Assembly: GCA_964019135.1 (NCBI GenBank)
Contig: OZ025256.1
Span: 15,693,911-15,757,910, forward strand
DNA from: Arenicola marina
Lineage: Eukaryota; Annelida; Polychaeta; Arenicolidae
Reading direction: 5' to 3'
Length of the DNA: 64,000 nucleotides
Of this stretch, positions 6,801-60,900 are shown in pieces. Both the position numbers and the translations under genes were made by a program. Under the pieces are notes generated by a model. It had not been told where the DNA came from. It made no database searches and worked only from the letters and a program-made list of their open reading frames with translations. Numbering within the stretch: position 1 is the stretch's first letter; each line of letters starts with the position of its first letter.

Positions 6801-9140
6801 TGAGGAGACCCGGATGTTGATGTTGCTGTGGCGACGAAGACGGCTGCGGGGATCCGGACCCGGCCGACCCGGCCCTGTCGTGGGGGGATCCCGGCGGCAC
6901 CTGCTGCGTGGGGCTCGGGGTGGGGCTCAGGCGGTGGAGGCCCTCGCCGTGGCCCGCCCCCGCCGTCCCTGTCCCACCCGGAGAACCAGCGTCGTTCTCA
7001 GACAGCAAATCCTCGTATTGAAAGTACGCGATGTTTCCGATTTGCATGCGCGGGGTGACTGAGGAGGCTCCAGGGGGTCTGTCCGCGGGGCTGGAATCCT
7101 GCGTCGGCGCCCCGTCCCCCATCTCACACACCGTGTTGCTATTGGCATCCGCTCCGCCCCCCGCCGGCCGCCCGGCGCGCCCCCCACCGCCATTGGCGTT
7201 GCTGTCGCTGACGGCCGCCGAGGCATTGTCCGGGAAACTGTCAGTGCGGCCGGCCTTGGCGGACCCCGAGGAGGAGCAAGATGAGGCGGAAGTGACGACA
7301 TCGGGTCCGGAATCCAATCCCATTTTGTCTTTTTTGTCGTCGCATGAGGCATGAGTTCTGAGATCTGCAGGTTTTCCCGACGAAGGGGGACTCGCACCAT
7401 TGTCAAGTGTGCCGACGAGGGACGCCGACCTACCAGTGGCGCCCTCTGTCGGAGGAACGCCCGAGGATCGCCCGGGAGGAGGCGCTTGTAGCTTGGGCAG
7501 CGGGCTTTCATCGACAGCGACCCCTACCGGCTGAGAGTGATATGTCTCCCGCTCCGCCTTGTGACCTTCATCTTCACTCGAATCGCTCTCGGTTTCATCA
7601 CCAATAGCAACCAGCGGCTTGCGTTCGCCGGCGACGCCTTCCTTCTCCGTGACCTCTGACCTCATCCTGGCCAACTCGGATAACTTCAAGGGTGACGTAG
7701 TTCCGGTGGGCGAGAGGCTCAACCCCAGAGCACCGCACGAACAGACGCTGTCGCTGCGCGTCATACGGGTACCCTTCCGCTCCGGGATGGCCTTCCCGAC
7801 TTCCCCGACAGCCTCCTCGGCGACTTCCGGTGGACTCTCGATTCCTTTCGTGTACATCGGGCAGGTGGCGGAGTGGTATATCTCAGGCTTTGGCTGGTCA
7901 GCGTTATTACTGCAAACACCCAAAGCAGAAAGCCATGGGGGACAAACCATAATAATTAATTGATGACAGTAACCGATCTGCATGTACTGTCCACTTCATA
8001 ACATACAATAAAGACACATGAATATTTACAAATTTGGACAGACATTGCGCACAAAATAATAGGGAGAATTTAATACAGTGACCTTGACCTAATGTTAATT
8101 ACATATATTGACCTTGACGTGATTTCAACTGAATAATGCAGTCCTTGACGTCATTTCAATTGAATAATGCGCTGACCTTGACGTCATTTCACTTGCATAA
8201 TGCGCTGACCTTGACGTCATTTCAATTGCATAATGCACTGACCTTGACGTCATTTCAATGGCATAATGCACTGACCTTGACGTCATTTCAATGGCATAAT
8301 GCACTGACCTTGACGTCAATACAACTGCATAATGAACTGACCGTGACCTCATTTCAATTGCATAATGCACTGACCTTGACGTCATTTCAATGGCATAATG
8401 CACTGACCTTGACGTCATTTCAATGGCATAATGCACTGACCTTGACGTCAATACAACTGCATAATGAACTGACCGTGACCTCATTTCAATTGCATAATGA
8501 ACTGACCGTGACCTCATTTAAATTGCATAATGCACTGACCTTATCTAAACCAAAGCCCCTTTTCTTTATCTCCCGAGCTCCGCTTACCTGATGAATTATC
8601 GTCTAACCTTTACCATTCATTTGACGGTGACATAAACCCAGACCCACACCCGGCATGGCGACCCCTGGCTGACCTTGACTTCTTGCGGTTCATGGCTGCG
8701 ATGTCGTGGTACATGGCGGCCGAGATGACGGTGTCCATGGGAGCGATCATTCCGTACTCGTCGGCGCCCCGGTCCATCACCAGCGGGTCGGACACGTTGG
8801 GGTCAAACATAATGGCGTTGGGGGTCACCAGGAGCACCCCTTTCACCACTCCCTGGACGCACACACACACAGAACGATATGAAACAGGAACGGTCGTGTT
8901 GAGCAAGTGAAGGTTAAATTAGGTCGCTGGCGACCAACTAGGCGGATCTACGGTCATTGCGACTGACTTACGAGAAATGCGACATACGATAATTGCGACT
9001 TACGACAATTACGACTTACCAAAATTACGAAATGCGGCAATTATGACTCGGAAGAATCTCACGAGATTTACGGATTTTAACGAAACCGTCACTTTTTACA
9101 TTAGAAGACCTAGCATCAGGCTATAAGGGGTATCCTCCAG

Positions 9141-9197
<57 letters not shown>

Positions 9198-12100
9198 AAT
9201 ACATTATGTATAAAATTTTTCACATTGTAACTGCTTTCCCGAAAAAAGTTACAATGTACCTTTACAATGTAACATGATGCACAAATATAGATCTACAGAT
9301 ATACTGCACACTGACCTCTCCATCTGTGATATGTTTCACGCTGACTTTACAATGTACCTTTACAATGTAACATGGTGCACAAATAAAGATCTACAGATAT
9401 ACTGCACACTGACCTCTCCATCTGTGATATGTTTGACGCTGACTTTACAATGTACCTTTACAATGTAACATGATGCACAAATAAAGATCTGCAGATATAT
9501 TGCACACTGACCTCTCCATCTGTGATATGTTTGACGCTGACTTTACAATGTACCTTTACAATGTGACATGATGCACAAATAAAGATCTGCAGATATACTG
9601 CACACTGACCTCTCCATCTGTGATATGTTTCACGCTGACTTTACAATGTACCTTTACAATGTGACATGATGCACAAATAAAGATCTACAGATATACTGCA
9701 CACTGACCTCTCCATCTGTGATATGTTTGACGCTGACTTTGATGAAGCGTTCGAAGCACTCGTCGTCCAGTCGCTTGACCTCCTCCTCCCCCAGCGGCCT
9801 CGGCGGCGGCGTCTCCGGCTCGCCGCTCAGTCGGAGGCGCTCGGCAATCCCCGGCCCTTTCCGCTCAGCAAGCTTCACCAGCGGGATCTCCTACAATGCG
9901 GAATGGCCACGCGCGATGTGAAAATCATCGAAATTGTTGTGCATATCGAGTGAGTTGTGCGTGTGTGCGTGCGTGGGATGAGGATGACGGGGGGGGGTGG
10001 GGGGGGATCCTAGATATATATCCCAATACCTAGAATGGATACAAATATTCTGAAGAGCAGTCGTTTTCCTTCGTACCAGAAAGTGGCGCTCCATACCAGG
10101 GTCTTATGGTTGGCACTCCGCGGGACTTGATCCAGGTTACCATACATTGATACAGGTAGATCCAGGACATTCTCCCCGGTGAATTCATAATGACTTCATC
10201 TGAAGCATTAGGCTACTGGACGAATATGAACCACAATAGCACGAATAGTCAATTTTCAATGTTACTAATTTTGTTAACTATAATGTGAAGAAGCGCGAAA
10301 AGGCAATGCCGCATTTACATCTGTGCTATTGTGCTTATTGATACTGAAAGAATAACTAACTTGACCTTATGTTTTGAAGGGAGTATTTAATGGATTATTA
10401 TAATAAAATCCAAATTTCTTGTCGCAATGAAGCATCGTGGTCGTCGTAATTCTTATTTAAGAGCGGGTGCATCAGAGTAAATGAAACGGTGCTGTTGCCA
10501 TGGATACGTCATGGAGTGCAAAGACATCAGAGCATGCGGTCGCACTGAAAAATGCATAACTTAAAACTGGAATTTTCTTATATTGTGTAACATAACTTAA
10601 ACTTAAGACAATCATTTTGTACAACACATTTTGATTTTTTTTCTCTTAAGTGCGAGCTTCTGATCTCCAAAATGTTTTTCTCCAAACATATCAGAATATG
10701 AACACAAGAAAATTCCTGTTTTTCACTCAGAGCATTTTCATCATTTTTTTTTAGATAGGCCAAGTATTTCGATGGGAGCAGCAAGGATGGTCTACAAACA
10801 GAATCCGGATACTACCAGTATATATATATAACCTACATAATGACTACTCGAGTACGCATTGGTAACAGCAAATCAGCTATATTACAAACCCATAAGAACA
10901 ACATCGCCTTATCAGTTAGGTTTATAGTACCTAAACAACTTCAAGACTACCTCTTGTAAAGTATGTCAAATGATAAAATATAACACCTTCCAGCAGCTGT
11001 GTGTGGGCTCGCAACCCCAAGTGAGGTATGGAGCGCCGTTTACACCACAAATAGTTAATTACATAATATCCCTGACTAGCACCTCAGTTGGCGTCAGGAT
11101 AAACTCATACATACATCATGTGTAATATTAAGTTACATTGCAAAAATGAAGGATTATTTTTCAAATATCCTGTAAGGTTACTTCGTAAAACTTTAAAGAT
11201 GGCGGCTTCGAACACTATAGAGGGCGCTGCTATTTGCGCGCCACGTGCATATCACGCAAATCCTGGTCAAATCCTCGTTCATCTCGTCCGTTAATACAAA
11301 GACACGACTGCATGGCCAGTTGACTCAAATACGTTTGATAATTTATCAGAAAACATAATTTTTTCGTTGGTAATCACTCCTGGCAAACCAACTGAAGGTC
11401 ACACTGTGGGGTGTTGAAGGCCAAATCCCCATTGTCTCAGGCGGCGACAACCCAGGGTAATTGCGCACTTATCTACAGGACAACGAGTTACTTTACAACG
11501 TCTGTGTGCGGTATTGCCTTACAAAAGTGATTCGTCCAATATAGAACTGCAAAATTTGACTTAAAGGACACGTATCCATCTGGCCTTTACAAAGCGTACC
11601 AGAAACGTAAGTATGTGTAGAATGTTCGCTTTGTCGGGACGGACACAAAAGTCAAAGTAAGAGGAAATGTTACTGAAAAACCTAAACGCATGTGGTAACA
11701 GCGTCTGTCCATACGGTCATGCAAACAATGACAGATAGGGTGGGTGCGCTAGGGCGACGGGCTGGGAGAGGGGGGGGGCAGTGTGCGGGGCGGAGTGGGG
11801 CGGAGCGGGGCGGAGCGGGGCGGTCTGGATGAACGGGGGGGAGGGGGCGGGGGACGGGAGAAAGGAACTATGGTGTCCACAAAAGGAGTATTTGGGAATC
11901 CGCAAGCATTTTCTCAAGGCCACGTTGTTTGTTAGTAGACAGATATATCATAAATTCCAAACTGGAGTTTGGAATTATAATATAATAACTCCACGGAATT
12001 ATAATGAAATCCACGAAATGCTTCACAGAAAGTCTCTTCGTTATGGATGTAAGTACTTCATTTAATTCAGCAAACTAAGTTGTTCGATAAAAAACGGATT

Positions 12101-15100: not shown

Positions 15101-16830
15101 GGATTCTTACCCACGACCTGTTTATCTGCACCGCAGCCTGACGTGACCCAGACTGACGTGACCCTGACTGGCGTGACTGGCTGACGTGACGGGCTGACGT
15201 GACCCTGACTGGCGTGACTTGCTGACGTGACCCAGACTGACGTGACCCTGACTGACGTGACCCTGACTGACGTAACCCAGACTGACGTGATCCTGACTGA
15301 CGTGACCCTGACTGGCGTCACTGGCTGACGTGACTGGCTGACGTCACTCTGACTGACGTGACCCTGACTGGCGTCACCCTGACTGGCGTCACCCTGACTG
15401 GCGTCACCCTGACTAACGTCACCCTGACTAACGTCACCATGACTGACGTGACGTCACCATGACTGACGTGACGTCACCATGACTGACGTGACGTCACCAT
15501 GACTGACGTGACGTCACCATGACTGACGTGACGACACCATGACTGACGTGACGTCACCATGACTGACGTGACGTCACCATGACTGACGTCACCCTGATTG
15601 ACGCGACGTCACCCTGATTGACGCGACGTCACCCTGACTGACGGGACGTCACCCTGACTGACCTGGCCCGGGAAGACCATGGTGGACATCATCCTGTTGA
15701 GTTTCTTCAGCTCCGAGGTCGTCGTGTCGAACTGTGCGGCAATACTGGCCAGGGTGTCCGTACCACACACCTGCAAGATGCAACACCACACACGCGTTAG
15801 GAATGTAAAACAGCATACAACATTAACATATCCATAATACATACAAATAAATGAATACGTAAAAAACAAACAAAAACTAAAAAATTAAAAGTTGGGTGTT
15901 TTGGGGGAAATGATGATTAAACTGCGCACCTGAAAGGCTACATATTCTAATCTTCGTACGCGAAAACATGCCTATGGCATTACTCCTGAGAGATGGGGTG
16001 TTATTTCAAGCACAAATATCCGATCCTATCCTCGCGTGACAGAGAGACCTGTGCCGAGATAAAGCCATCTCGCTTAGGAACCCATGCCAAAAGCATCCTC
16101 ACATATCCAACGCACTTGTTCAGGGTGCTGACTGGCGAGATGACCATTTACCCGTGGTCACTGCTGAAGACGACCTCACCTCACTGCTGGGGCTGCAGGA
16201 CCCAATAAGGGCACAGGCGTTCTATGCACGATCCCACAAGAGGGGATGGGCACGTGTAGTACGTGAGGGAATGGCCCACCGCGACGGGCTCTGCTTTGAG
16301 AAACTGGACTTAAAACGCCAATCTATGCGCCCAGCGAGTACAAACAAAGACCTATCGACAGGTCACCGATGCGACCACTGCGGTAAGCCCTGTCAGTCAC
16401 TCACACATAGGTTTATTCAGTCATAAGCGCACATGCCGCGACGCAAACCGTATTACTTAGACCAAAAACAAAGTTGCAAATCCATCGCCTTTCGCAGACG
16501 GCCGGACGGACGCCAACCTATTTTCCGTTCTATAGATGTAATATCCTAAACACAGCTACAACAAACGCTCAACACAAGCAGCCTGAGCGAGTGAGGAGAC
16601 CACGGTATGTGTGTTTAACACAGCGAGGTCACTAAATGGGCCTCGAGACAGCGCGACACAACGTTCGATTGCCCCCCGATTGCATGTGATCTGGCATAAT
16701 ACAACAGGGCGGAGTTTTATTTCAGCCGTGCAGATGCGCAGTTGTAGGTAGGCGATCGACTGGAAAACCAGCAAATGGCGAAGGTCAACGGTGAATCGAA
16801 ACCTCACTGCCATCATTGAAGACCGCGCAC

Positions 16831-19800: not shown

Positions 19801-22800
19801 TGGGCACCAGCCACCCACTGAACGTAGGCGGGGTCTGGGCACCAGCCACCCACTGAACGCAGGTCGGGTCCGGGCACCAGCCACCCACTGAACGTAGGCG
19901 GGGTCCGGGCACCAGCCACCCACTGAACGCAGGCGGTGTCTGGGCACCAGCCATTCACTGAACGCAGGCGGTGTCTGGGCACCAGCCATTCACTGAACGT
20001 AGGCGGTGTCTGGGCACCAGCCATCCACTGAACGTAGGCGGTGTCTGGGCACCAGCCACCCACTGAACGTAGGCGGGGTCTGGGCACCAGCCACCCACTG
20101 AACGCAGGTCGGGTCCGGGCACCAGCCACCCACTGAACGTAGGCGGGGTCCGGGCACCAGCCACCCACTGAACGCAGGCGGTGTCTGGGCACCAGCCATT
20201 CACTGAACGCAGGCGGTGTCTGGGCACCAGCCATTCACTGAACGTAGGCGGTGTCTGGGCACCAGCCATCCACTGAACGTAGGCGGTGTCTGGGCACCAG
20301 CCACCCACTGAACGTAGGCGGGATCTGGGCACCAGCCACCCACTGAACGTAGGCGGGGTCCGGGCACCAGCCACCGACTGAACGTAGGCGGGGTCCGGGC
20401 ACCAGCCACCGACTGAACGTAGGCGGGGTCCGGGCACCAGCCACCCACTGAACGTAGGCGGGGTACGGGCACCAGCCACCCACTGAACGCAGGTCAGCTC
20501 CAGGGCACCAGCCACCCACTGAACGTAGGCGGGGCCCGGGCACCAGCCACCCAGGGAAAGCTTTTTAACCTATGTAGGTCATTTGGTGCCAATAAGTAAG
20601 ATTAAGGTAGAGGGGAGCCACGTCTTCGCGAGTGGCAGAGGTGGGGTTCGAACCACGCACCAGCAGCGTGGTCTGGCCCAGCAGAGCACATTCGGCAATA
20701 GCCTAACACGCGGCTCACCATCGACCACAGGGTTAGGTCTCCAAGAAATGACGAGCTACTGTCTTCGAAATGGATTCGAAAGAGTGAGTTATTGCTCCCG
20801 AAATGGCGAGTTATTGCTCCCGAAATGGCGAGCTATTGCTCCCGAAATGGCGAGCTATTGCTCCCGAAACGGCGAGTTATCGCTCCCGAAATGGCGACTT
20901 AATGTCTTCGAGACGATTACGTATTGCATGAAGAGGACCAGTGGCTTTCCTCAGGCGACAAAGGCCAGACTGACGCAACACAATACATCATGTGCCCTTG
21001 TACAGCCTTCACATTTCACACAGGAACCTTCAACACTCACTGACGTCCCTCCCCAACTCAACCCCCAGCCCTCACCATGCAAGCGGGGCCGGGGCCACCC
21101 CATCTCAACCCCCAGCCTCACCATGGCCGCGGGGCCGGGGCCACCCCATCTCAACCCCCCAGCCTCACCATGGCCGCGGGGCCGGGGCCACCCCATCTCA
21201 ACCCCCAGCCTCACAATGTACGCGGTGCCGGGGCCGCCCCATCTCAACCCCCCAGCCTCACCATGGCCGCGGGGCCGGGGCCACCCCATTTCAACCCCCA
21301 GCCTCACAATGTACGCGGGGCCGGGGCCGCCCCATCTCAACCCCCCAGCCTCACCATGGCCGCGGGGCCGGGGCCACCCCATCTCAACCCCCCAGCCTCA
21401 CCATGGCCGCGGGGCCACCCCATCTCAACCCCCCAGCCTCACCATGGCCGCGGGGCCGGGGCCACCCCATCTCAACCCCCAGCCTCACCATGGCCGCGGG
21501 GCCGGGGCCACCCCATCTCAACCCCCCACCCTCACCATGGCCGCGGGGCCACCCCATCTCAACCCCCCAGCCTCACCATGGCCGCGAGGCCGGGGCCGCC
21601 CCATCTCAACCCCCCAGCCTCACCATGGCCGCGGGGCTACCCCATCCCAAGCCCTCAGCCTCACCATGGCCGCGGGGCCACCCCATCCCAACCCCCCAGC
21701 CTCACCATGGCCGCGGGGCCGGGGCCGCCCCATCTCAACCCCCCAGCCTCACCATGGCCGCGGGGCCGGGGCCACCCCATCTCAACCCCCCAGCCTCACC
21801 ATGGCCGCGGGGCCACTCCATGTCAACCCCCCAGCCTCACCATGGCCGCGGGGCCACTCCATCCCAACCCTCCAACCTCACCATGGCCGCGGGGCCGGGG
21901 GCACCCCATCTCAACCCCCCCGCCTCACCATGGCCGCGGGGCAGGGGCCGCCTCATCTCAACCCCCCAGCCTCACCATGGCCGCGGGACCGGGGCCACCC
22001 CATCGCAACCCCCCAGCCTCACCATGGCCGCGGGGCCACCCCATCTCAACCCCCCAGCCTCACCATGGCCGCGGGGCCACCCCATCTCAACCCCCCAGCC
22101 TCACCATGGCCGCGGGGCCGGGGCCGCCTCATCTCAACCCCCCAGCCTCACCATGGCCGCGGGGCCGGGGCCACCCCATCTCAACTCCCCAGCCTCATCA
22201 TGGCCGCGGGGCCACCCCATCTCAATCCCCCAGCTTCACCATGGCCGCGGGGCCACCCCATCTCAACCCCCCAGCCTCACCATGGCCACGGGGCCGCCCC
22301 ATCTCAACCCCCCAGCCTCACCATGGCCGCAGGGCCGGGGCCACCCCATCTCAACCCCCCAGCCTCACCATGGCCGCAGGGCCGGGGCCACCCCATCTCA
22401 ACCCCCCAGCCTCACCATGGCCGCGGGGCCGCTCCATCCCAACCCCCCACCCTCACCATGGCCGCGGGGCCGGGGCCACCCCATCTCAACCCCCCAGCCT
22501 CACCATGGCCGCGGGGCCACGCCATCTCAACCCCCCAGCCTCACCATGGCCGCGGGGCCGGAGCCACCCCATCTCAACCCCCCAGCCTCACCATGGCCGC
22601 GGGGCCGGGGCCACCCCATCTCAACCCCCCACCCTCACCATGGCCGCGGGGCCGAGGCCGCCCCATCTCAACCCCCCAGCCTCACCATGGCCGCGGGGCC
22701 ACCCCATCTCAACCCCCCAGCCTCACCATGGCCGCGGGGCCGGGGCCACCCCATCTCAACCCCCCAGCCTCACCATGGCCGCGGGGCCGGGGCCACCCCA

Positions 22801-25800
22801 TCTCAACCCCCCACCCTCACCATGGCCGCGGGGCCGAGGCCGCCCCATCTCAACCCCCCAGCCTCAACATGGCCGCGGGGCCACCCCATCCCAACCCCCC
22901 AGCCTCACCATGGCCGCGGGGCCGGGGCCACCCCATCTCAACCCCCCCCCCCCCTCACCATGGCCGCGGGGCCGAGGCCGCCCCATCTCAACCCCCCACC
23001 CTCACCATGGCCGCGGGGCCGAGGCTGCCCCATCTCAACCCCCCAGCCTCACCATGGCCGCGGGGCCACCCCATCTCAACCCCCCAGCCTCACCATGGCC
23101 GCGGGGCCGCCCCATCTCAACCCCCCAGCCTCACCATGGCCGCGGGGCCGAGGCCACCCCATCTCAACCCCCCGCCCTCACAATGTACGCGGGGCCGGGG
23201 CCGCCCCATCTCAACCCCCCAGCTCCACCATGGCCGCGGGGCCACCCCATCTCAACCCCCCAGCCCTCACCATGGCCGCGGGGCCGGGGCCACCCCATCT
23301 CAACCCCCCAGCCTCACCATGGCCGCGGGGCCGGGGCCGCCCCATCTTAACCCCCGAGCCGCACCATGGCCGCGGGGCCGGGGCCGCGTGGACCCTGCTC
23401 CAGGGTGAGTGCCGTGTCGCCAAGTAGGGTGGCAACGGGGCAGGTGGCAACGGGAGGGTGGCTGCTGGGGGATGGAGGCGGGGCGGGGAAGGGGAAGGGA
23501 GCGGCGGAGGGAGAAGGGGAGGGGGGCTGTTGGGGGATGGAAATGGGGGCAGGGGCGGGGGCGGGTGGGGGGCCGATTGAGGACCCCCGTGGCAGGCAAT
23601 CACTCGTGATGAACCACCGTGCTCCAGCTTCCTTTCATGACCCTTAAAGAGGCACTCGGCCTGACAATCTTTACCAACCTCAGCCCTAACTCAAGGTGCC
23701 CGGCACCCGGCTCCGCTCCATCCCAATCGCTCCCGTCCTGGCCCCGAAACCTATAAATTAACCCTCCTTCCCGTGCCCCGTGCCCCCTTGCCCCCCCCCC
23801 CCCCCACCCTCCTCCGCCTCCCTTACCCTCCACCACCAGAGAACTCTCTACCCACAGTCTTTGTCCTCGCTACATCTGCAGCCCTTCGTGCCCGCAAGGC
23901 AATATGGATTTTTCAATTTATTACAGCAAAGCTCTTTGGCAGGTATTGGGGAAGCGGTTGTATGGGGTTTGGGAAGAGGGTATGGGTGTATGGGGTTGGA
24001 GAAGAGGGTATAGCTGTAGGGTTTGGGGAAGAGGGTATGGCTGTAGGGGTTGGGGGAAGAGGGTATGGCTGTGGGGGTTGGGGGATGTTGGGGGGAGAGG
24101 GTATGGCTGTAGGGGTTGCGGGAAGAGGATATGGCTGTAGGGTTTGGGGAAGAGGATATGGCTGTGGGAGTTGGGGGAAGAGGGTATGGCTGTGGGGGTT
24201 GGGGGAAGAGGATATGGCTGTAGGGTTTGGGGAAGAGGGTATGGCTGTGGGGGTTGGGGGAAGAGGGTATGGCTGTAGGGTTTGGGGAAGAGGATATGGC
24301 TGTAGAGGTTGGGGAAGAGGGTATGGCTGTGGGGGTTGGGGAAGAGGGTATGGCTGTAGGGTTTGGGGAAGAGGATATGGCTGTAGAGGTTGGGGAAGAG
24401 GGTATGGCTGTGGGGGTTGGGGGAAGAGGGTATGGCTGTAGGGTTTGGGGGAAGAGGATATGTTTGTGGGGGTTGGGGAAGAGGGTATGGCTGTGGGGGT
24501 TGGGGGAAGAGGGTATGGCTGTAGGGTTTGGGGAAGAGGATATGGCTATAGAGGTTGGGGAAGAGGGTATGGCTGTGGGGGTTGGGGAAGAGGGTATGGC
24601 TGTAAGGTTTGGGGAAGAGGATATGGCTGTAGAGGTTGGGGAAGAGGGTATGGCTGTGGGGGTTGGGGGAAGAGGGTATGGCTGTAGGGTTTGGGGAAGA
24701 GGATATGGCTGTAGAGGTTGGGGAAGAGGGTATGGCTGTGGGGGTTGGGGGGAAGAGGGTATCGCTGTGGGGGTTGGGGGAAGAGGGTATGGCTGTAGGG
24801 TTTGGGGAAGAGGATATGGCTGTAGAGGTTGGGGAAGAGGGTATGGCTGTGGGGGTTGGGGAAGAGGGTATGGCTGTAGGGTTTGGGGAAGAGGATATGG
24901 CTGTAGAGGTTGGGGAAGAGGGTATGGCTGTGGGGGTTGGGGGAAGAGGGTATGGCTGTAGGGTTTGGGGGAAGAGGATATGGTTGTGGGGGTTGGGGAA
25001 GAGGGTATGGCTGTGGGGGTTGGGGGAAGAGGGTATGGCTGTAGGGTTTGGGGAAGAGGATATAGCTGTAGAGGTTGGGGAAGAGGGTATGGCTGTGGGG
25101 GTTGGGGGGAAGAGGGTATGGCTGTGGGGGTTGGGGGAAGAGGGTATGGCTGTGGGGTTTGGGGAAGAGGATACAGCTGTAGAGGTTGGGGAAGAGGGTA
25201 TGGCTGTGGGGGTTGGGGGAAGAGGATATGGCTGTGGGGGTTGGGGAAGAGGGTATGGCTGTGGGGGTTGGGGGAAGAGGATATGGCTGTAGAGGTTGGG
25301 GAAGGGGGTATGGCTGTGGGGGTTGGGGGAAGAGGATATGGCTGTAGAGGTTGGGGAAGAGGGTATGGCTGTAGGGTTTGGGGAAGAGGATATGGCTGTA
25401 GAGGTTGGGGAAGAGGGTATGGCTGTGGGGGTTGGGGGGAAGAGGGTATGGCTGTGGGGTCTGGGGAAGAGGATATGGCTGTAGAGGTTGGGGAAGAGGG
25501 TATGGCTGTGGGAGTTGGGGGAAGAGGATATGGCTGTAGAGGTTGGGGAAGAGGGTATGGCTGTGGGAGTTGGGGGAAGAGGATATGGCTGTGGGGGTTG
25601 GGGAAGAGGGTATGGCTGTAGGGTTTGGGGAAGAGGATATGGCTGTAGAGGTTGGGGAAGAGGGTATGGCTGTGGGGGTTGGGGGGAAAAGGGTATGGCT
25701 GTGGGGTTTGGGGAAGAGGATATGGCTGTAGAGGTTGGGGAAGAGGGTATGGCTGTGGGAGTTGGGGGAAGAGGATATGGCTGTGGGGGTTGGGGAAGAG

Positions 25801-28800
25801 GGTATGGCTGTGGGGGTTGGGGGAAGAGGATATGGCTGTAGAGGTTGGGGAAGAGGGTATGGCTGTAGGGTTTGGGGAAGAGGATATGGCTGTAGAGGTT
25901 GGGGAAGAGGGTATGGCTGTGGGGGTTGGGGGGAAGAGGGTATGGCTGTGGGGTTTGGGGAAGAGGATATGGCTGTAGAGGTTGGGGAAGAGGGTATGGC
26001 TGTGGGAGTTGGGGGAAGAGGATATGGCTGTGGGGGTTGGGGAAGAGGGTATGGCTGTGGGGGTTGGGGGAAGAGGATATGGCTGTAGAGGTTGGGGAAG
26101 GGGGTATGGGTGTGGGGGTTGGGGGAAGAGGGTATGGCTGTGGGGGTTGGGGGAAGAGGATATGGCTGTGGGGGTTGGGGAAGAGGGTATGGCTGTGGGG
26201 GTTGGGGGAAGAGGATATGGCTGTAGAGGTTGGGGAAGGGGGTATGGGTGTGGGGGTTGGGGGAAGAGGGTATGGTTGTGGGGGTTGGGGGCAGTGGGTA
26301 CACCAGACCCTGAATGGCATCATACTACCTCTCCACCCGTCCATACACCCACTTCTCCACCTACCCATACACCCACCTCTCCACCCACCCCTACAGTCAC
26401 TCCACCGCCATACAATCATGAGGGTATCACATCACAATTTCTACTCAATCGTCATCTCACAATCGCTAACCATATCTACCCTATGGCCCCAATTCAATCC
26501 CCCATTCATCCCACCAAGCACCCCCCCCCCCCATTCAGGGTCCGGCGAAAATAAAAACGTATCAAGACTCGTCATCTGTGAGCCGTGACAGCCACCGCCC
26601 ATCCTATTATTACAGCCAGCCGCCACGGAGGGTGGGGGGGTAAGGAGGGTGAGCAGACCCCAAACCCCCCCCCCCAACTTCCCTCCCCTGAGGCACGTCA
26701 GCCAGATAAGTCACGACCTCAAAATCCCAAAATCCCCAAACCAGGGAATGTTGCATCCGTTACAACGCACGTTGACGAGGCGAGACGAACAGAAATCAAT
26801 TAACCCGACAATTATTACGGCCCTGAATAAAACTGGTAGCAATATCGTCGGCAGAACCCTTCAGCACCCGTGCCCTTTTCTTTTCCCCCTTAACACCCTT
26901 TACAAAATAAACCCCTCCGCCTTTCCCACCCACCCCGTGACGCTGCCACTTCTAGGCTCGGATAAACCTCCCCCTACCCTCTCCCCCAGCTTCCCCCCAC
27001 ATCTGGCCGCCGCTCGACCCGTCACAACCGTCTCAGCGCCTTGTATTATCGCCTATCGTTCCCCGGACGTTTGATTGACTTGATCCCACAGAGCGGTTTA
27101 TGTCGGCGGGGAAGAGGCGCGGAATGGGAAGAGGTGGAGGAGGAGGGAGGGGGGGAGAGGTGGAGGAGGAGGGGGAGAGGTGGAGGAGGAGGGGGAGAGG
27201 TGGAGGAGGGGAGGGGTGAAGGAGGAGGGGGTGGGGGGTGAGGGGAAGGAGGTGGGGGGGCTGGTGAACTGAACCATGACAACTACCGAGTATATATATG
27301 GTACAAACGAGGGTGATATGGCGATGTGTGGCACTGGTGAGAGCGTAATACTGTCCTCGGGGGGGGGGGGGGGGTTAACACCCCCCCCCCCATCCCCAAG
27401 GCAAACAACGACACGGGCACGGAATGACGATGTTATGGAATTAACGACTCTCAGTTGGTCGTCTCAGCCGAATGTCATTGGATAGACGATCCTGGGTGGG
27501 AACACCGAACCCGCTACCCATTCAGTCACGGTGACAGCACATCAACAGCATGTCAACAGGTTTTCATGATGTGTGATGAACGAATGGATTGGTGGTTTAG
27601 ACCACCGCTGTGCACACAAGGGTTCAACATCGCTAAAACCCGGTGAGAATTGAGATGACATCGCGTCACAATCGACTATTAATAAGGCTATCGAGTGCGG
27701 CATAACAATTAATTAACCCGAGCCCCAAGATGCCAGTGACGATAGCAGCGACCATACCTCATCCCCAACCAACCGCCCTACGAATGCCCTGGATGGCTGG
27801 ATTGGAGCTTCAGGATGCCACGTGTGTGCACACACGAGTTCAAACGGGCCCAGGGTAAACCAGGGATCATTAGATGAACCCTAAGGGCGTGCTCGATTTA
27901 CCTGAAACCGACGGGAAACCGAAACCGTTTTTGAAACGTCGCACCTAGAACAACGGGAATTGAGAAAGTCGCACCTAGAACTACGTGAATTGAGAAAGTC
28001 GCACCTAGAACTACGTGAATTGAGAAAGTCGCACCTAGAACAACGTGAATTCAGAAAGTCGCACCTAGAACTACGTGAATTGAGAAAGTCGCACCTAGAA
28101 CTACGTGAATTGAGAAAGTCGCACCTAGAACTACGTGAATTGAGAAAGTCGCACCTAGAACTACGTGAATTGAGGAAGTCGCACCTAGAACTACGTGAAT
28201 TGAGAAAGTCGCACCTAGAACTACGTGAATTGAGAAAGTCGCACCTAGAACTACGTGAATTGAGAAAGTCGCACCTAGAACTACGTGAATTGAGAAAGTC
28301 GCACCTAGAACTACGTGAATTGAGAAAGTCGCACCTAGAACTACGTGAATTGAGAAAGTCGCACCTAAAACTACGTGAATTGAGAAAGTCGCACCTAAAA
28401 CTACGTGAATTGAGAAAGTCGCACCTAGAACAACGTGAATTGAGAAAGTCGCACCTAGAACTACGTGAATTGAGAAAGTCGCACCTAGAACTACGTGAAT
28501 TGAGAAAGTCGCACCTAGAACTACGTGAATTGAGAAAGTCGCACCTAGAACTACGTGAATTGAGAAAGTCGCACCTAGAACTACGTGAATTGAGAAAGTC
28601 GCACCTAGAACTACGTGAATTGAGAAAGTCGCACCTAGAACTACGTGAATTGAGAAAGTCGCACCTAGAACTACGTGAATTGAGAAGTCGCACCTAGAAC
28701 AACGTGAATTGAGAAGTCGCACCTAGAACTACGTGAATTGAGAAAGTCGCACCTAGAACTACGTGAATTGAGAAAGTCGCACCTAAAACTACGTGAATTG

Positions 28801-31800
28801 AGAAAGTCGCACCTAGAACTACGTGAATTCAGAAAGTCGCACCTAGAACTACGTGAATTGAGAAAGTCGCACCTAGAACAACGTGAATTGAGAAAGTCGC
28901 ACCTAGAACAACGTGAATTGAGAAAGTCGCACCTAGAACTACGTGAATTCAGAAAGTCGCACCTAGAACTACGTGAATTCAGAAAGTCGCACCTAGAACT
29001 ACGTCAATTCAGAAAGTCGCACCTAGAACTACGTGAATTCAGAAAGTCGCACCTAGAACTACGTAAATTCAGAAAGTCGCACCTAGAACTACGTGAATTG
29101 AGAAAGTCGCACCTAGAACTACGTGAATTGAGAAAGTCGCACCTAGAACTACGTGAATTGAGAAAATCGCGCCTAAAACTACGTGAATTGAGAAAGCCGC
29201 CCCTAGAACAACGTGAATTGAGAAAGTCGCACCTAAAACTACGTGAATTGAGAAAGTCGCACCTAAAACTAGGTGAATTGAGAAAGCCGCGCCTAGAACT
29301 ACATAAATCGAGAAAGTCGCACCTAGAACTACGTGAATTCAGAAAGTCGCACCTAAAACTAGGTGAATTGGGAAAGTCGCGCCTAGAACTACGTGAATTG
29401 AGAAAGCCGCCCCTAGAACAACGTGAATTCAGAAAGTCGCACCTAAAACTACGTGAATTGAGAAAGTCGCACCTAAAACTAGGTGAATTGAGAAAGTCGC
29501 ACCTAGAACTACGTGAATTGAGAAAGTCGCACCTAGAACTACGTGAATTGAGAAAGTCGCACCTAGAACTACGTGAATTGAGAAGTCGCACCTAGAACTA
29601 CGTGAATTGAGAAAGTCGCACCTAGAACTACGTGAATTGAGAAAGTCGCACCCAGAACTACGTGAATTCAGAAAGCCGCCCCTAGACCGACGTGAATTGA
29701 GAAAGTCGCACCTAGAACTACGTGAATTGAGAAGTCGCACCTAGAACTACGTAAATTCAGAAAATCGCACCTAGAACTACGTAAATTCAGAAAGTCGCAC
29801 CTAGAACTAGTCGCACCTAGAACTACGTGAATTGAGAAAGCCGCCCCTAGAAAAACGTGAATTGAGAAAGTCGCACCTAAAACTACGTGAATTCAGAAAG
29901 TCGCGCCTAGAACTACGTGAATTGAAAAAGTCGCACCTAGAACTGCGTGAATTGAGAAAGTCGCACCTAGAACTACGTGAATTGAGAAAGCCGCCCCTAG
30001 AACAACGTGAATTAAGAAAGTCGCACCTAAAACTACGTGAATTGAGAAAGTCGCGCCTAGAACTACGTGAATTGAGAAAGTCGCACCTAAAACTACGTGA
30101 ATTGAGAAAGTCGCGCCTAGAACTACGTGAATTGAGAAAGTCGCACCTAAAACTACGTGAATTGAGAAAGTCGCGCCTAGAACTACGTGAATTGAGAAAG
30201 TCGCACCTAGAACTACGTGAATTGAGAAAGTCGCGCCTAGAACTACGTGAATTGAGAAAAGTCGCACCTAGAACTACGTGAATTGAGAAAGTCGCACCTA
30301 AAACTACGTGAATTGAGAAAGTCGCACCTAAAACTAGGTGAATTGAGAAAGTCGCGCCTAGAACTACGTGAATTGAGAAAGTCGCACCTAAAACTACGTG
30401 AATTGAGAAAGTCGCACCTAAAACTAGGTGAATTGAGAAAGTCGCGCCTAGAACTACGTGAATTGAGAAAGTCGCACCTAGAACTACGTGAATTGAGAAA
30501 GTCGCACCTAGAACTACGTGAATTGAGAAAGTCGCACCTAGAACTACGTGAATTGAGAAAGTCGCCCCTAGAACAACGTGAATTGAGAAAGTCGCACCTC
30601 AAACTACGTGAATTGAGAAAGTCGCACCAAGAACAACGTAAATTGAGAAAGTCGCGCCTAGAACTACGTGAATTGAGAAAGTCGCACCTAGAACTACGTG
30701 AAGTGAGATTGTCGCACCTAGAACTACGTGAATTGAGAAAGTCGCACCTAGAACTACGTGAATTGAGAGAGTCGCACCTAGAACTACGTGAATTGAGAAA
30801 GTCGCACCTAGAACTACGTGAATTGAGAAAGTCGCACCTAAAACTATGTGAATTGAGAAAGTCGCGCCTAGAACTACGTGAATTGAGAAAGTCGCACCTA
30901 GAACTACGTGAATTCAGAAAGTCGCACCTAGAACTACGTGAATTGAGAAAGTCGCACCTAGAACTACGTGAATTGAGAAAGTCGCCCCTAGAAAACGTGA
31001 ATTCAGAATCTCGCCCCTAGAACAACGTGAATTAAGAAAGTCGCACCTAGAACTACGTGAATTGAGAAAGTCGCACCTAGAACTACGTGAATTCAGAAAG
31101 TCGCACCTAGAACTACGTGAATTCAGAAAGTCGCACCTAGAACTACGTGAATTCAGAAAGTCGCACCTAGAACTACGTGAATTCAGAAAGTCGCACCTAG
31201 AACTACGTGAATTCAGAAAGTCGCACCTAGAACTACGTGAATTGAGAAAGTCGCGCCTAGAACTACGTGAATTAAGAAAGCCGCCTCTAGAACAACGTGA
31301 ATTGAGAAAGTCGCACCTAAAACTACGTGAATTGAGAAAGTCGCACCTAAAACTAGGTGAATTGAGAAAGTCGCGCCTAGAACTACGTGGATTGAGAAAG
31401 TCGCACCTAGAACTACGTGAATTGAGAAAGTCGCACCTAAAACTAGGTGAATTGAGAAAGTCGCGCCTAGAACTACGTGAATTGAGAAAGCCGCCCCTAG
31501 AACAACGTAAATTGAGCAAGTCGCACCTAAAACTACGTGAATTGAGAAAGTCGCACCTAGAACTACGTGAATTGAGAAAGTCGCACCTAGAACTACGTGA
31601 ATTGAGAAAGTCGCCCCTAGAACTACGTGAATTCAGAAAGTCGCGCCTAGAACTACGTGAATTGAGAAAGCCACCCCCAAACAACGTGAATTGAGAAAGT
31701 CGCACCTAAAACTACGTGAATTGAGAAAGTCGCACCTAAAACTAGGTGAATTGAGAAAGTCGCGCCTAGAACTACGTGAATTGAGAAAGTCGCACCTAGA

Positions 31801-34800
31801 ACTACGTGCATTCAGAAAGTCGCACCTAGAACTACGTGAATTGAGAAAGTCGCCCCTAGAAAACGTGAATTCAGAAAGTCGCCCCTAGAACAACGTGAAT
31901 TGAGAAAGTCGCACCAAGAACAACGTAAATTGAGAAAGTCGCGCCTAGAACTACGTGAATTGAGAAAGTCGCACCTAGAACTACGTGAAGTGAGATTGTC
32001 GCACCTAGAACTACGTGAATTAAGAAAGTCGCACCTAGAACTACGTAAATTGAGAGAGTCGCACCTAGAACTACGTGAATTGAGAAAGTCGCACCTAGAA
32101 CTACGTGAATTGAGAAAGTCGCACCTAAAACTACGTGAATTGAGAAAGTCGCGCCTAGAACTACGTGAATTGAGAAAGTCGCACCTAGAACTACGTGAAT
32201 TGAGAAAGTCGCACCTAGAACTACGTGAATTCAGAAAGTCGCACCTAGAACTACGTGAATTGAGAAAGTCGCCCCTAGAAAACGTGAATTCAGAATCTCG
32301 CCCCTAGAACAACGTGAATTGAGAAAGTCGCACTTAAAACTACGTGAATTGAGAAAGTCGCACCAAGAACAACGTAAATTGAGAAAGTCGCGCCTAGAAC
32401 TACGTGAATTGAGAAAGTCGCCCCTAGAAAACGTGAATTCAGAATCTCGCCCCTAGAACAACGTGAATTGAGAAAGTCGCACCTAAAACTACGTGAATTG
32501 AGAAAGTCGCACCAAGAACAACGTAAATTGAGAAAGTCGCGCCTAGAACTACGTGAATTGAGAAAGTCGCACCTAGAAAACGTGAATTCAGAATCTCGCC
32601 CCTAGAACAACGTGAATTGAGAAAGTCGCACCTAAAACTACGTGAATTGAGAAAGTCGCACCAAGAACAACGTAAATTGAGAAAGTCGCACCAAGAACAA
32701 CGTGAATTGAGAAAGTCGCACCTAAAACTACGTGAATTGAGAAAGTCGCACCTAGAACTACGTGAATTGAGAAAGTCGCACCTAAAACTACGTGAATTGA
32801 GAAAGTCGCGCCTAGAACTACGTGAATTGAGAAAGTCGCACCTAGAACAACGTGAATTGAGAAAGTCGCACCTAGAACTACGTGAATTGAGAAAGTCGCA
32901 CCTAGAACAACGTGAATTGAGAAAGTCGCACCTAGAACAACGTGAATTGAGAAAGTCGCACCTAGAACAACGTGAATTGAAAAAGTCGCACCTAGAACTA
33001 GACCCTCGTGATCGAACAGAATCATATCACTTGTCGACCTGGATCCGCGCCTGTTTAAGGTCTTTGTACGCTACCTAAGTACTACGCAGTGATGTCCGTG
33101 ATTCGGGATAACAAGTGTAATTATCTTCGTAAACCGAAAACAATTTAATATTATTTGGAGACACCCCCCCCCCCCCCCACACCACCACCATCATTGCGCG
33201 CCCCCCACCCCCATCTCCATCACTCCCAACCACTGGCGGGACTACGGAATAAACACCACCGTACCACGTGCCTGACCACTCAGCATCACCCTAACCACTC
33301 ACATTACCACACTAAACACTCATGTATCGCCCAGCCTCACCCCAGCGAGATGTAGCCTCCCCTGTCCCTCACCGTGCTCCCCCTAACAACCCCCCCTCCC
33401 CCCCCCCCCACCTCCCAGCAGGCACCTTTTCCTTCTCACCGGTCAAGAGCCCTTGCCTTTTCCTCGACACCACAAATATGACCCTTAGCGTCCACCCCGC
33501 AACCCAGTCATCTGCTTAATTCACACAGGCGCCCCCAGACGGTTGTCAACAGAACCGCTCACCCCCCACCCCCCTTCCCTCCCTCCCTGTCCACTTTCCC
33601 GACACCGAAAGTAAGCAAGCCACAAGAGCTCGCAATTTCCGACCGACGTATTTGCTCAAAAATGATACAGTTACGTCGTTGTTTTCATCGTTCCGCGGCA
33701 ATTATCTCCATATCATAATAATACAAATACAATTATTCCCAGCGAGATTTCGTTTCATGATGAAAAAATGAACGAGCCTATAGGGCTTCCGGTAACGTCA
33801 CGTGACTCGGAAGGATCCTTGGCCTTTGGAAGATTTCCACTGGGGGTCACGTGGCGGTGTCCCAGGCTCATCTGGGTCGTTCTTCCATGTAAGAGCGAAC
33901 CATTAGTTTAGCATAGCTCACGTATTACTCACGGCCGCCATTTACTACAATAATCCATTTCGTGGGTTCTAACATGGAAGATGGTTGGTTTGTTATTCAG
34001 GACGCTTTAACCACGTTTGGTCATATCGCGTCAATGGGAGAAGGAAGGGAGAGTGGAGCCATGTCCCCGGGGGTAACCCCCTACTCTTTACGAAGAAAGA
34101 CATGGGATCTTTATCCTGCGACCACACACATGACCACAGCGGGGATCGAAGCACCGATCCACGTGCCGTTAGCCTCTCACCCAAAGTGGCCAGAGCGAGC
34201 GCGCTAACCCACTGAGCTATCGTGGCGGCCCCTGACGCGGCTGGAACCAAATAGAAACTTAAAGCCCGTACCAGTCTACCGTACATACCTCGTACATGAT
34301 GGTGCCCTTGGGCTGGGCTCCTCTCTGCGAGCGCCGCTTGCCTTCCCTCTTCCGCTTGTCCAGGCCGCCATCTTGGCCTGAAAAGGTACAGGCAGAATGG
34401 CGTAAGATTATAACAACACAGACTGAAACACGCGGATGAGACCACAGAACAATGAAGACTAAATAACCGAAGGAGACAATTACAGAACGACAAATGGCGA
34501 CATCTGAGACAGGTCACATAAAAACTGTATTCAAATTTTGCCACCTCTATAGAACTATTGGAGTTAACTAGTCATTTTTTCAGAATCATGAGACAATCAG
34601 TTAGTGGTCATCAAAGGGTTACATTGTTCTATACTTTCCAGGCACCAGCCCTAATCAAGACTGTCTAAGGAGGCAAGGAGTTTAACAACGTTAAGGTAAC
34701 TCTAGAAAAGGCATTAGCGGAGATAACGTGGTTCACCGAAAATTCCATGAAAGCGAACCCAAGTAATTACCAGGGAATCGTGTTTGAAAAGAGAAACGAA

Positions 34801-57966: not shown

Positions 57967-60900
57967 ATGTTAGAAGTAGATCTGGATGACCGTCTTGTTG
58001 TAATGTCTGAGGAAAAACTGATACTGCTGCAGGTAGGCCAAAGGAGTACTTTAATTAAAGCTGCTCATGCGGTTACCGGGGCCGGGGGCGGGGGTCCGTT
58101 ACCGGTGGTATCTGATCTTGGCCGCAAGGTGGGGGTAGGGGGGTGTCGGGGGATTAGTGATCTGTTGTAGTGACCAGATGTGTTCAGTGTAATACAAATA
58201 AGTGCTACCTAAAATGTGAGCGTATATATCTGTATACAGTGCCAGTGCCAGTGGTATATACTATAGTCGGCACGGAAACTATTTGCCGCCTCGTTTTCTA
58301 ATTTGACACGAAATGTTTCATTGACTAACCTAAAATCAGTTTATATTTGTCAACTTGAACCAAAGACCCAACAGAATTTGGCGTACTCACAGTCCTGTTG
58401 TCAAAAAAATTCACATGATACCAACATTATGACTTTCACGCAAACGAAGCGGACAAGTTTAGCTATGGCCGTCTTCGTCTGCTATACTTTATGGTAGAGA
58501 CTATGGTGATGTGCTGTTATTAAAGAAGATACACTTTCAAGTAAGTTAAAATCACAAGGGTCTCGTCTAATGGAGCAAATAAATACATAAATCGTGGCTG
58601 CAAATGGTACACAGACAAAAATATTTACGAAAGCGAGGCGGCAGATATTAAACCGAGCCGACTATAGTATAGTAGACAGTTGTTGCTCTGCACAACAGTC
58701 TCATGTCCTCATGTAGAAAATGAGGGTATAAGATTTGTTTTTGTGGGCGACTAAGTGTTGTTAAAGTTGCATGTGGAGCTCTTTCCCGCCAAAACTAAAG
58801 AGGTCAAAATACAAATAAGAATCAGTCCTTGAATCATTAAAGATTTGTTTTGTTTATACTCCACCCATACCAGACTGCCAAATAGTGTCTCTTAGCCTTG
58901 CCCATGATATCAATTTACCACAAATTTTCATTTCAGTGGTAAACGTCATCAGTTTGTGTGCTTCCCGATGCTTTGTTATAAGTAGCAGTGCCGCGACAGA
59001 ATGCTGTGGTGTCGCGGGATAGATACGTTTGCCACACCACAGCCGAAACGGCGAGGTTTATCAGGTTTCTGAATTTATGGAATAGAACAATCAAGTTTTC
59101 TGCAAATTTTGATATAAATTTCGCCTGGGCTTAGTTTTGGCGGGAAAGAACTCGACATGCAACTTTAACCGCACGATCCATCAAACCCTACACTGGGTGG
59201 GCAAGGTGGTGGACAGAACTCAGTTGTCTGCTGCTTCGAAAAATCAACAGACGATATCGTCATAATCACGGAGACTTTAACCAAAATAACAAGATAAGTT
59301 GTAAGATGCATACTTTCAGAAACTGCTGCCATACCCCAAAAAGTTCTCGCCATCAGCACCGCTTCTCGCCACGCGTGTTTGTAAAATGCTGTACAGGATT
59401 TGATAGACCGGACATGTGGCGTTATTTCCCAACAACGTCACATGGGGCTAATACTATAGTAGCTATTCTATTAGGATACATCTTAATATTCAAAATAAAT
59501 CCCACTTCGACTTGCCATAATGCATATCATACCATTCACCTGTGATTTGGTTGCTTAGGACCTCCGTGATATCATTATTATAACATTATCATGTCACTAC
59601 TCTTGTAGTATCTCTGATCCCAGATTCAAACCAGTGACCCTTCACATCCAGGGCGAACACCTAGTGCAATAGACCAAAGGGAACTTCCCATTTGCCCAAG
59701 GCTTTTGGTATCTTTTATCCACCGGGCCTAGGCTGAGATACCAATCTCCACTCTTTCCCAAATCGACTGCGACCTCGCAGTAACGACCACTTGCAACCAG
59801 CTGTCAAACTTGATGCTGGCCATATCCTGTGGCTCTGCATGGTTTCGACAACCCAGGTCCGTTTCCGTCAGCTCCAAATGTATTATTTCTGGTCTCAGGC
59901 CTGGATGGATGCCAAAAGTTCCTTACCCGGCGGGATTCGTACCGGTGACCATTCGCATCCTGGGTGACCACCTAGCACATTAGACCAAAGGGAACTTCCC
60001 ATTTGGCCCCCCCGAGGCTCTTGGTGTCTTTTATCTACAGGGCCTCGGCTGAGATACCACACTCAGACTACTCCGTGTATAGGATGCAGATATAGATTTT
60101 ATCATTTGTTACATGTGTGTTATCTAAAGAGCTTTTTACATTTGCTGGATGTACTGATTAGTCTCTATATGCAATAAATAATGGGATATATTATTAGGTC
60201 ACTTTATTTATCCAAACTGGTATATCTTGTGTAGGAAAGTGTAGCTTTCTTGTACATAAAAGTCAGTCATAAATGCTGTAGAATGACGTGGCTGCCCATA
60301 TTTGCTTTTTTTTTTTTACCTGATTTAATATAACATATATTTTATATAGTCAACATTTACAGTCAGGCTATGTGTCCAAGACATTTTCCCAACAGATACA
60401 GGCAGAAAATTGCTGTATGAGCAGCTTTAATCCTTTTGACTGATACTTGTTTGTTAACCTGTCAAGAAGTGTTGCAGATCACCATTTAAAGGTCCAGAAA
60501 TGTAGAAAAGTAGGGAGGGAGGGGAAACAAAACCAGAAAACAAAATTTGGCCTATTTATTGTATATTTTATTTGCAGTTCATAGACACCAATGCATAACT
60601 TTCAGTGTCTCATCCTATATATCCAGTCTCCACTTTCATCCCTACTGCAATAAATGTCGCATAAATTATAATTTCTTGCTCAAGAGCACTACATTTAAAT
60701 ACTTTCTTTGGTACCAAGCATTTTCATTTTTGTGAAGAAGTCTATGTTTTTCAATATAAGGTATCTACTTTATGCCAAAGTATTTAACTTAGGAACTAGC
60801 TAATATGTAAGTAAAGATAAAGGATGTTCTATTATGTTTCAGTCCATATGGAGAGGAGTGCTGACAAGGAAGAAGTTGAAACAAGTACAAGCTGATTATT

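What the first reader, a model, noticed from the sequence alone, without database searches (positions are those of the whole stretch)
9251..9890. 98-bp array carries five copies of a coding exon end plus its splice donor
Seen: five 98-bp units, each with the codons for KVSVKHITDGE followed by GAG|GTCAGTGTG; only the rightmost belongs to the real GRAM exon. Four decoy donors follow in the intron. Using any of them would add multiples of 98 bases and shift the frame. Inference: correct splicing must favour the first donor by exon definition, and copy number could tune OXR1 output. This is the second consecutive case in one gene of an array born at a donor.
Basis: seen in the sequence. Interest (0 to 1): 0.82.

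Follow-up and report, generated by a model that had tools for sequence, protein, structure and literature searches.

The report
Repeated splice donors in annelid introns
In this worm (annelid) genome the end of a gene segment, together with the signal that tells the cell where to cut the RNA, has been copied head-to-tail five times, and the same arrangement turns up in several other genes examined; such copied signals are known from lancelets, where they are reported to be harmless, but they offer a natural test of how cells choose between identical cut signals.

Summary
On the minus strand a 98-bp unit is repeated five times (9249-9740). Each unit holds the last 33 nt of a GRAM-region exon of an OXR1-like gene, then 65 nt of intron beginning with the donor (GAG|GTCAGT). 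The outermost copy belongs to exon 9708-9890; four identical decoy donors follow in the 855-nt intron. Any decoy would bring in the same in-frame TAA 51 nt past the true donor, so the frame-shift argument is moot.

It is not peculiar to this gene. The genome looks annelid by mitochondrial gene order. Of 77 other exons examined, 9 (in 7 of 32 other loci) carry arrays that include part of the exon plus its splice site: 8 donor and 2 acceptor edges. One myosin intron holds at least 50 copies, 46 with the identical donor.

This matches the 'mirage' minisatellites of amphioxus, reported not to disturb splicing. Best reading: a by-product of minisatellite expansion across a splice site, with the decoys skipped. 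My searches listed no annelid report of such arrays, though an earthworm paper mentions untranscribed exon duplications. Splicing, polymorphism and dosage effects could not be tested.

The parts
9708..9890 (-). coding exon of the OXR1-like gene (GRAM region), 183 nt, ends with KVSVKHITDGE; its last 33 nt are the exon part of repeat copy 1
   Evidence: open frame, AG acceptor and GT donor in phase with the next exon
9643..9740 (-). repeat unit 1 (33 nt exon + 65 nt intron), true donor with first intron base 9707
9545..9642 (-). repeat unit 2, decoy donor (first intron-like base 9609)
9447..9544 (-). repeat unit 3, decoy donor (9511)
9349..9446 (-). repeat unit 4, decoy donor (9413)
9251..9348 (-). 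repeat unit 5, decoy donor (9315)
9249..9250 (-). two-base partial unit at the distal end of the array
8853..9707 (-). intron, 855 nt; the five GAGGTCAGT sites and one other site (9019) are the ones that score at least 3.0 on a recalled donor matrix
8674..8852 (-). next coding exon (GVVKGVLLVTPN...), 179 nt, donor AAG|GTCAGC
8109..8542 (-). 33-bp array (13.2 copies) 131 bp past that donor; unit shares 13 of 14 nt with the donor junction
15663..15770 (-). LysM exon of the same gene, donor CAG|GTCAGT
15138..15662 (-). 15- and 20-bp arrays that begin at the first intron base after the LysM exon

Best explanation
This is a 'mirage' minisatellite. A tandem duplication straddled an exon-intron junction and then expanded to five 98-bp copies (inferred from the anatomy). 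Because the extra copies lie on the intron side, the outermost copy stays joined to the rest of the exon, so the coding sequence and its donor are unchanged and the intron merely grows. The four intronic copies carry perfect donors but are normally skipped (inferred): the first-transcribed, exon-joined donor is used, and a transcript spliced at a decoy would meet the TAA 51 nt past the true donor and be non-productive. The process is not specific to OXR1 but recurs in this minisatellite-rich annelid genome. Shown: the array, identical donors, the stop, exon-edge arrays in other genes, and lack of strong protein constraint on decoy copies. Inferred: the duplication history, skipping of decoys and near-neutrality.
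For: Five copies with identical donors. In-frame TAA before the first decoy. In other genes, exon-end-plus-donor arrays at kinesin C14:6742300 (30 copies), C14:6743157 (3, one with a lost GT), C20:13012801 (at least 34), C10:22888960 (3), and myosin C7:32814139 (9 by a loose match), C7:32813243 (11), C12:10144302 (at least 50), C12:34187954 (2); acceptor-side arrays at C17:1217539 and C10:22888960. 19-24% of the examined bases lie in near duplicates, a minisatellite-rich background. Distinct variants in decoy exon parts of six arrays are 19 non-synonymous (one a stop) and 12 synonymous. Amphioxus mirages have the same anatomy; for Adh, troponin C and globins regular mRNA is reported (PMC3087553 and PMC3902484, passages).
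Against: No RNA evidence for this species. Donor-edge onsets were more frequent than random placement gives (6 of 73 edges against a mean of 2.02, P 0.0125), which purely random array birth does not predict. The synonymous share of decoy variants (12 of 31) is above the 19-30% expected per array, so weak constraint or exchange with the real exon is not excluded.
Confidence: 0.82

Rival explanations
1. The array is a regulatory device: a share of transcripts uses decoy donors, meets the stop codon and is degraded, so copy number tunes OXR1 output.
For: The five donors are identical over at least 16 nt and each decoy leads to the same premature stop. Recalled, not read: classical minigene work in which the intron-proximal of two equal donors often wins, which would favour decoys.
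Against: The same arrangement is seen in unrelated motor-protein genes with 2 to at least 50 copies, which looks like an indiscriminate process. Amphioxus RT-PCR is reported to suggest regular splicing.
Confidence: 0.08
2. Arrays are born preferentially at donors by a mechanism tied to transcription or splicing, rather than at random.
For: Onsets in the last 60 nt of exons: 6 of 73 donor edges against a mean of 2.02 in 2000 random placements, P 0.0125. A cruder count gave 12 donor-side onsets in that zone (2.7 per kb) against 0.0-1.1 per kb in bins deeper in the intron. Some arrays start exactly at intron +1.
Against: No excess inside exons on the acceptor side (2 of 74 against 2.41). Repeat coverage does not peak at the edge: 8% in the last 30 exon nt, 17% in the first 30 intron nt, 21-24% from 60 nt on. 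Small sample; in the count one gene (C7) gives two of the six; exon edges predicted by a simple recalled matrix.
Confidence: 0.25
3. The units are real alternative exons or exon extensions that add protein sequence.
For: Each unit preserves the KVSVKHITDGE codons; in C14:6743157 the 60-nt unit is a multiple of three and the frame is open past the first decoys.
Against: The 98-nt unit is not a multiple of three and holds an in-frame TAA; by inspection no pyrimidine-rich acceptor precedes the units; decoy copies elsewhere carry non-synonymous changes and a stop.
Confidence: 0.03
4. Assembly artefact.
For: Raw reads not available.
Against: Copies differ by private variants; the contig is 43 Mb long; the pattern recurs with different units in other genes.
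Confidence: 0.02

Closest known systems
'Mirage' minisatellites of amphioxus (Adh3, globins BflGb6 and BflGb9, troponin C, PGBD5)
   Same: Tandem minisatellite-like copies of an intron-exon boundary, with exon sequence and in many copies the splice signal, on the donor or the acceptor side; mRNA reported regular (PMC3087553, PMC3902484; passages seen)
   Different: Here in an annelid, with copy numbers up to at least 50 against 3 and 6 units in the two BflGb6 haplotypes; polymorphism and splicing not tested here
Internal tandem repeats at exon-intron boundaries in human segmental-duplication genes (PMC2812944; abstract and passages seen)
   Same: Minisatellite-sized repeats at exon-intron boundaries that change gene structure
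   Different: There tied to recent paralogs and to new introns or alternative transcripts; here in conserved single genes, with no new intron shown
Intron gain by tandem duplication (potato RdRp case PMC4974935, start of abstract in a listing only; Rogers model as cited in PMC3087553)
   Same: Tandem duplication supplies ready-made splice sites
   Different: Here the intron already exists; the duplicates enlarge it
Earthworm metallothionein genes (PMC12783039; passages seen)
   Same: Annelid intronic minisatellites; a clone with duplications of the fourth exon that are not represented in the transcript; donor consensus GTYAGK fits the GTCAGT donors here
   Different: In the passages seen the intron repeats are not described as holding an exon end or splice site, and the exon-4 duplications are not described as a minisatellite

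Membership tests
mirage minisatellite | tandem repeats of minisatellite size in which the unit spans an exon-intron boundary | tested here: met
   33 nt exon + 65 nt intron per 98-bp unit
mirage minisatellite | splice signal kept in many copies | tested here: met
   GAGGTCAGT in 5 of 5 copies
mirage minisatellite | one authentic exon edge, the other copies intronic | tested here: met
   only unit 1 is continuous with exon 9708-9890; by genomic reading, no RNA
mirage minisatellite | regular splicing not disturbed | not testable with these tools
   no RNA data held
mirage minisatellite | length polymorphism or somatic instability | not testable with these tools
   one place in one assembly
OXR1/NCOA7 family gene | LysM domain and TLD domain in order on one strand | tested here: met
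   LysM PF01476 E 1.9e-8; TLD PF07534 exons at C9:15683001-15685593, minus strand, downstream; that they are one transcript is inferred
OXR1/NCOA7 family gene | GRAM-like region between them | tested here: inconclusive
   no Pfam hit above cut-off for the two joined exons; the name rests on recalled similarity to OXR1/NCOA7

The most novel reading that the evidence does not exclude
5' splice sites are hotspots for minisatellite birth in this annelid lineage, so that about a tenth of exons carry runs of their own splice site, and copy-number change at these runs sets the rate of unproductive splicing gene by gene.
Probability: 0.1. Interest if true: 0.85.

Novelty: new member of a known kind. 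Interest (0 to 1): 0.55.

Why it matters
In the papers I saw, mirages are described gene by gene in lancelets. Finding them in an annelid, at 9 of 77 sampled exons and with up to at least 50 copies in one intron, suggests that splice-site minisatellites may be a general outcome of minisatellite-rich genomes. They give natural series of identical donors with nearly identical exonic context that differ mainly in position. That makes the old question of how the spliceosome picks one of several equal 5' splice sites, and the idea that introns arise from such duplications, directly testable with long-read RNA.

Tried and rejected
Lamprey origin was my first guess from repeat content and recalled OXR1 similarity. 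I dropped it because of the few very large contigs (16 contigs numbered up to C20 were seen with lengths, 33-77 Mb) and the mitochondrial order Ser-ND2-COX1-Asn-COX2-Asp-...-Tyr-Gly. That this order is the annelid one is recalled knowledge.

The BLAST-based census listed 9 of 84 exons but missed the donor-side copies at C10:22888960; a window-by-window comparison replaced it (11 of 84 including the OXR1 exon). On reading, C13:39079656 was dropped because its array ends before the acceptor. C4:41885060, listed but not, was dropped because its array starts next to the donor without exon sequence. Seven rows of one duplicated TLD gene group on C7 were collapsed to two.

Left out of the census: 2 of 14 TLD rows that have internal stops (one of them, L013, did show an edge array); kinesin and myosin rows for which I held no sequence (39 of 133 kinesin and 31 of 77 myosin rows were examined); and the kinase hits, because many cover most of the domain in one open frame and so show no nearby splice site, or lie on small contigs. 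Of 30 kinase loci, 16 were in the first look only, where one gave only a 17-base match.

Weak lead: exon parts of decoys look more conserved than intron parts in three of five arrays, but alignment noise in G runs may explain much of it in two of them, and distinct-variant counts show no strong constraint.

Paper searches for competing identical donors gave nothing usable; statements on classical minigene results are recalled. PMC6823432 was looked at (passages) and is about something else.

Full report
What is there. On the minus strand, a 98-bp unit is repeated five times at 9249-9740. Read on the gene's strand, each unit is 33 nt of exon end (AAAGTCAGCGT...GGAGAG, codons KVSVKHITDGE) followed by 65 nt of intron that begins with GTCAGT. 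The five units differ at 6 of 98 columns, with 2-4 differences in any pair. The five donor regions are identical over at least 16 bases; chance expectation for such matches in the window is 0.02. Only the outermost copy is continuous with exon 9708-9890, which is 183 nt, open throughout and correctly bounded. The next exon starts at 8852, making an 855-nt intron. In this intron the five GAGGTCAGT sites and one other site are the ones that score 3.0 or more on a recalled donor matrix. The 640-bp stretch matched once in the assembly.

Which gene and organism. A LysM exon lies upstream (PF01476, E 1.9e-8) and TLD-domain exons lie downstream on the same strand of the same contig, as in OXR1/NCOA7. 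The GRAM naming of the two exons rests on recalled similarity; Pfam gave no hit above cut-off. The genome has 867 Mb in 762 contigs; 16 contigs numbered up to C20 were seen with lengths of 33-77 Mb. The reading frames of its mitochondrial contig fit ATA as Met and AGA as Ser, and it carries Ser-ND2-COX1-Asn-COX2-Asp-...-Tyr-Gly, which I recognise, from recall, as the annelid order.

What a decoy would do. Reading on past the true donor gives 17 codons and then TAA, 51 nt into the intron and before the first decoy at +98. Splicing at any of the four decoys therefore gives the same truncated frame. That 98 is not a multiple of three adds nothing.

Is it special to this gene. I used exon hits for the TLD, kinesin and myosin families in the same genome. 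They were taken by family score, plus other hits that fell inside the fetched stretches, and not by repeats. Flanks were held for 84 exons (12 of 14 TLD rows, 39 of 133 kinesin, 31 of 77 myosin, and the two GRAM exons; 5 further kinesin rows lacked flank), in 33 position clusters. A window comparison (30 nt, at least 26 matching, offset up to 1500) flagged 11 of 84 exons, one being the OXR1 exon. I dropped one whose array stops short of the acceptor (C13:39079656) and collapsed duplicate TLD rows. That leaves 9 of 77 other exons (three of the 77 are OXR1's own TLD exons, none positive), in 7 of the 32 other clusters, with 8 donor edges and 2 acceptor edges. The two acceptor cases are weaker: at C10:22888960 the exon part is only about 8 nt by reading, and at C17:1217539 the nearest decoy has lost its AG.

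Copy numbers of exon end plus donor range from 2 to at least 50. Myosin C12:10144302 shows 50 copies of a 62-bp unit in the stretch held, 46 with the identical donor. Kinesin C20:13012801 shows 34 copies, 31 with the identical donor (matches of at least 80%). Of the nine donor arrays with OXR1, the 60-bp unit is a multiple of three; 98, 92, 62, 58 and 32 are not; three vary in length.

Are arrays born at donors. In a random-placement test an array began inside the last 60 nt of the exon and ran into the intron at 6 of 73 donor edges, against a mean of 2.02 in 2000 placements (P 0.0125). On the acceptor side it was 2 of 74 against 2.41. The test missed two donor cases, one for zone width and one, I think, for a mispredicted donor. 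A cruder onset count (not collapsed by gene copy) also showed more onsets near edges: 12 in the last 60 exon nt on the donor side, 11 in the last 60 intron nt on the acceptor side. Against this, repeat coverage does not peak at the edge but rises from 8% in the last 30 exon nt to 21-24% in the intron on the donor side. It is suggestive, not conclusive. At the least, donor edges are not depleted of arrays.

Are decoy copies under coding constraint. In six arrays, the distinct variants in decoy exon parts were 12 synonymous and 19 non-synonymous, one of them a stop; the neutral synonymous share is 19-30% per array. This does not support translation of the decoys, though the mild synonymous excess leaves room for exchange with the real exon.

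The 33-bp array at 8109-8542 is 131 bp past the donor of exon 8674-8852. Its unit shares 13 of 14 nt with that donor junction; 1 of 590 random 60-mers scored as high, in a single post hoc test. It may derive from the junction but does not span it. The LysM exon gives a clearer companion: its array begins at the first intron base.

What is known. Minisatellite-like tandem copies of intron-exon boundaries were named mirages in amphioxus. Passages of PMC3087553 describe donor- and acceptor-side cases in globin genes, haplotypes with 3 and 6 units, earlier Adh3 cases with 10-72 bp units, and RT-PCR suggesting regular splicing. A passage of PMC3902484 adds PGBD5 and cites Adh and troponin C as not generating aberrant mRNAs. 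In human segmental duplications, tandem repeats at exon-intron boundaries can create introns (PMC2812944, abstract and passages). An earthworm paper reports intronic minisatellites, exon-4 duplications that are not represented in the transcript, and a donor consensus GTYAGK that fits the GTCAGT here (PMC12783039, passages). My nine searches listed no paper that I recognised as reporting splice-site arrays in annelids; several listings were cut (for example 15 of 187 papers), and most subscription journals are not in that library.

Verdict. The array is real and fits a mirage minisatellite, in an annelid OXR1-like gene. It most likely arose by duplication across the junction and is tolerated because the outer copy is used. 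Its wider interest lies in how often the pattern recurs in this genome and in the long runs of identical donors, which make splice-site choice testable.

Noticed in passing
window 61040-61810 (+), reading frame 60804-62054: An 18-bp repeat, 42.8 copies at 100% matches, lies inside an open reading frame and encodes IPKHAD repeats; the frame (shortened copy scanned) has an IQ-motif hit just under Pfam's cut-off. A coding minisatellite.
   Followed up: no
L085 (C7:32812061-32814821), exon hit C7:32814139: In this myosin gene many ~36-bp units hold a C-rich tract with CACAG, a 9-12-nt exon-like piece (TGTCATCATCAG) and a donor GTACGT, so each repeat looks like a tiny exon with its own splice sites.
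   Followed up: partly
contigs C232, C330, C390, C443, C465, C497, C504, C536, C609, C652, C684: Small contigs with kinase or kinesin hits interrupted by in-frame TAA/TAG but no TGA, as in ciliates that read these as glutamine; probable contaminant or associate.
   Followed up: no
C3, about 14-57 Mb: Dozens of kinase-like hits, each covering most of the domain in one open frame of roughly 250-380 codons, spread over one chromosome.
   Followed up: no
C4:367768-384767: Several myosin-head hits to the same two parts of the profile (about 110-154 and 590-640), suggestive of mutually exclusive alternative exons.
   Followed up: no
C7:38442172-38527293: A group of tandem TLD-domain genes; three of them show a 55-bp repeat that starts exactly at the predicted intron's first base.
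   Followed up: partly
window 1-64000: Very high minisatellite load: 85 TRF rows, including arrays of 2-5 kb at 21051-23385, 23959-26300 and 27933-33000.
   Followed up: no
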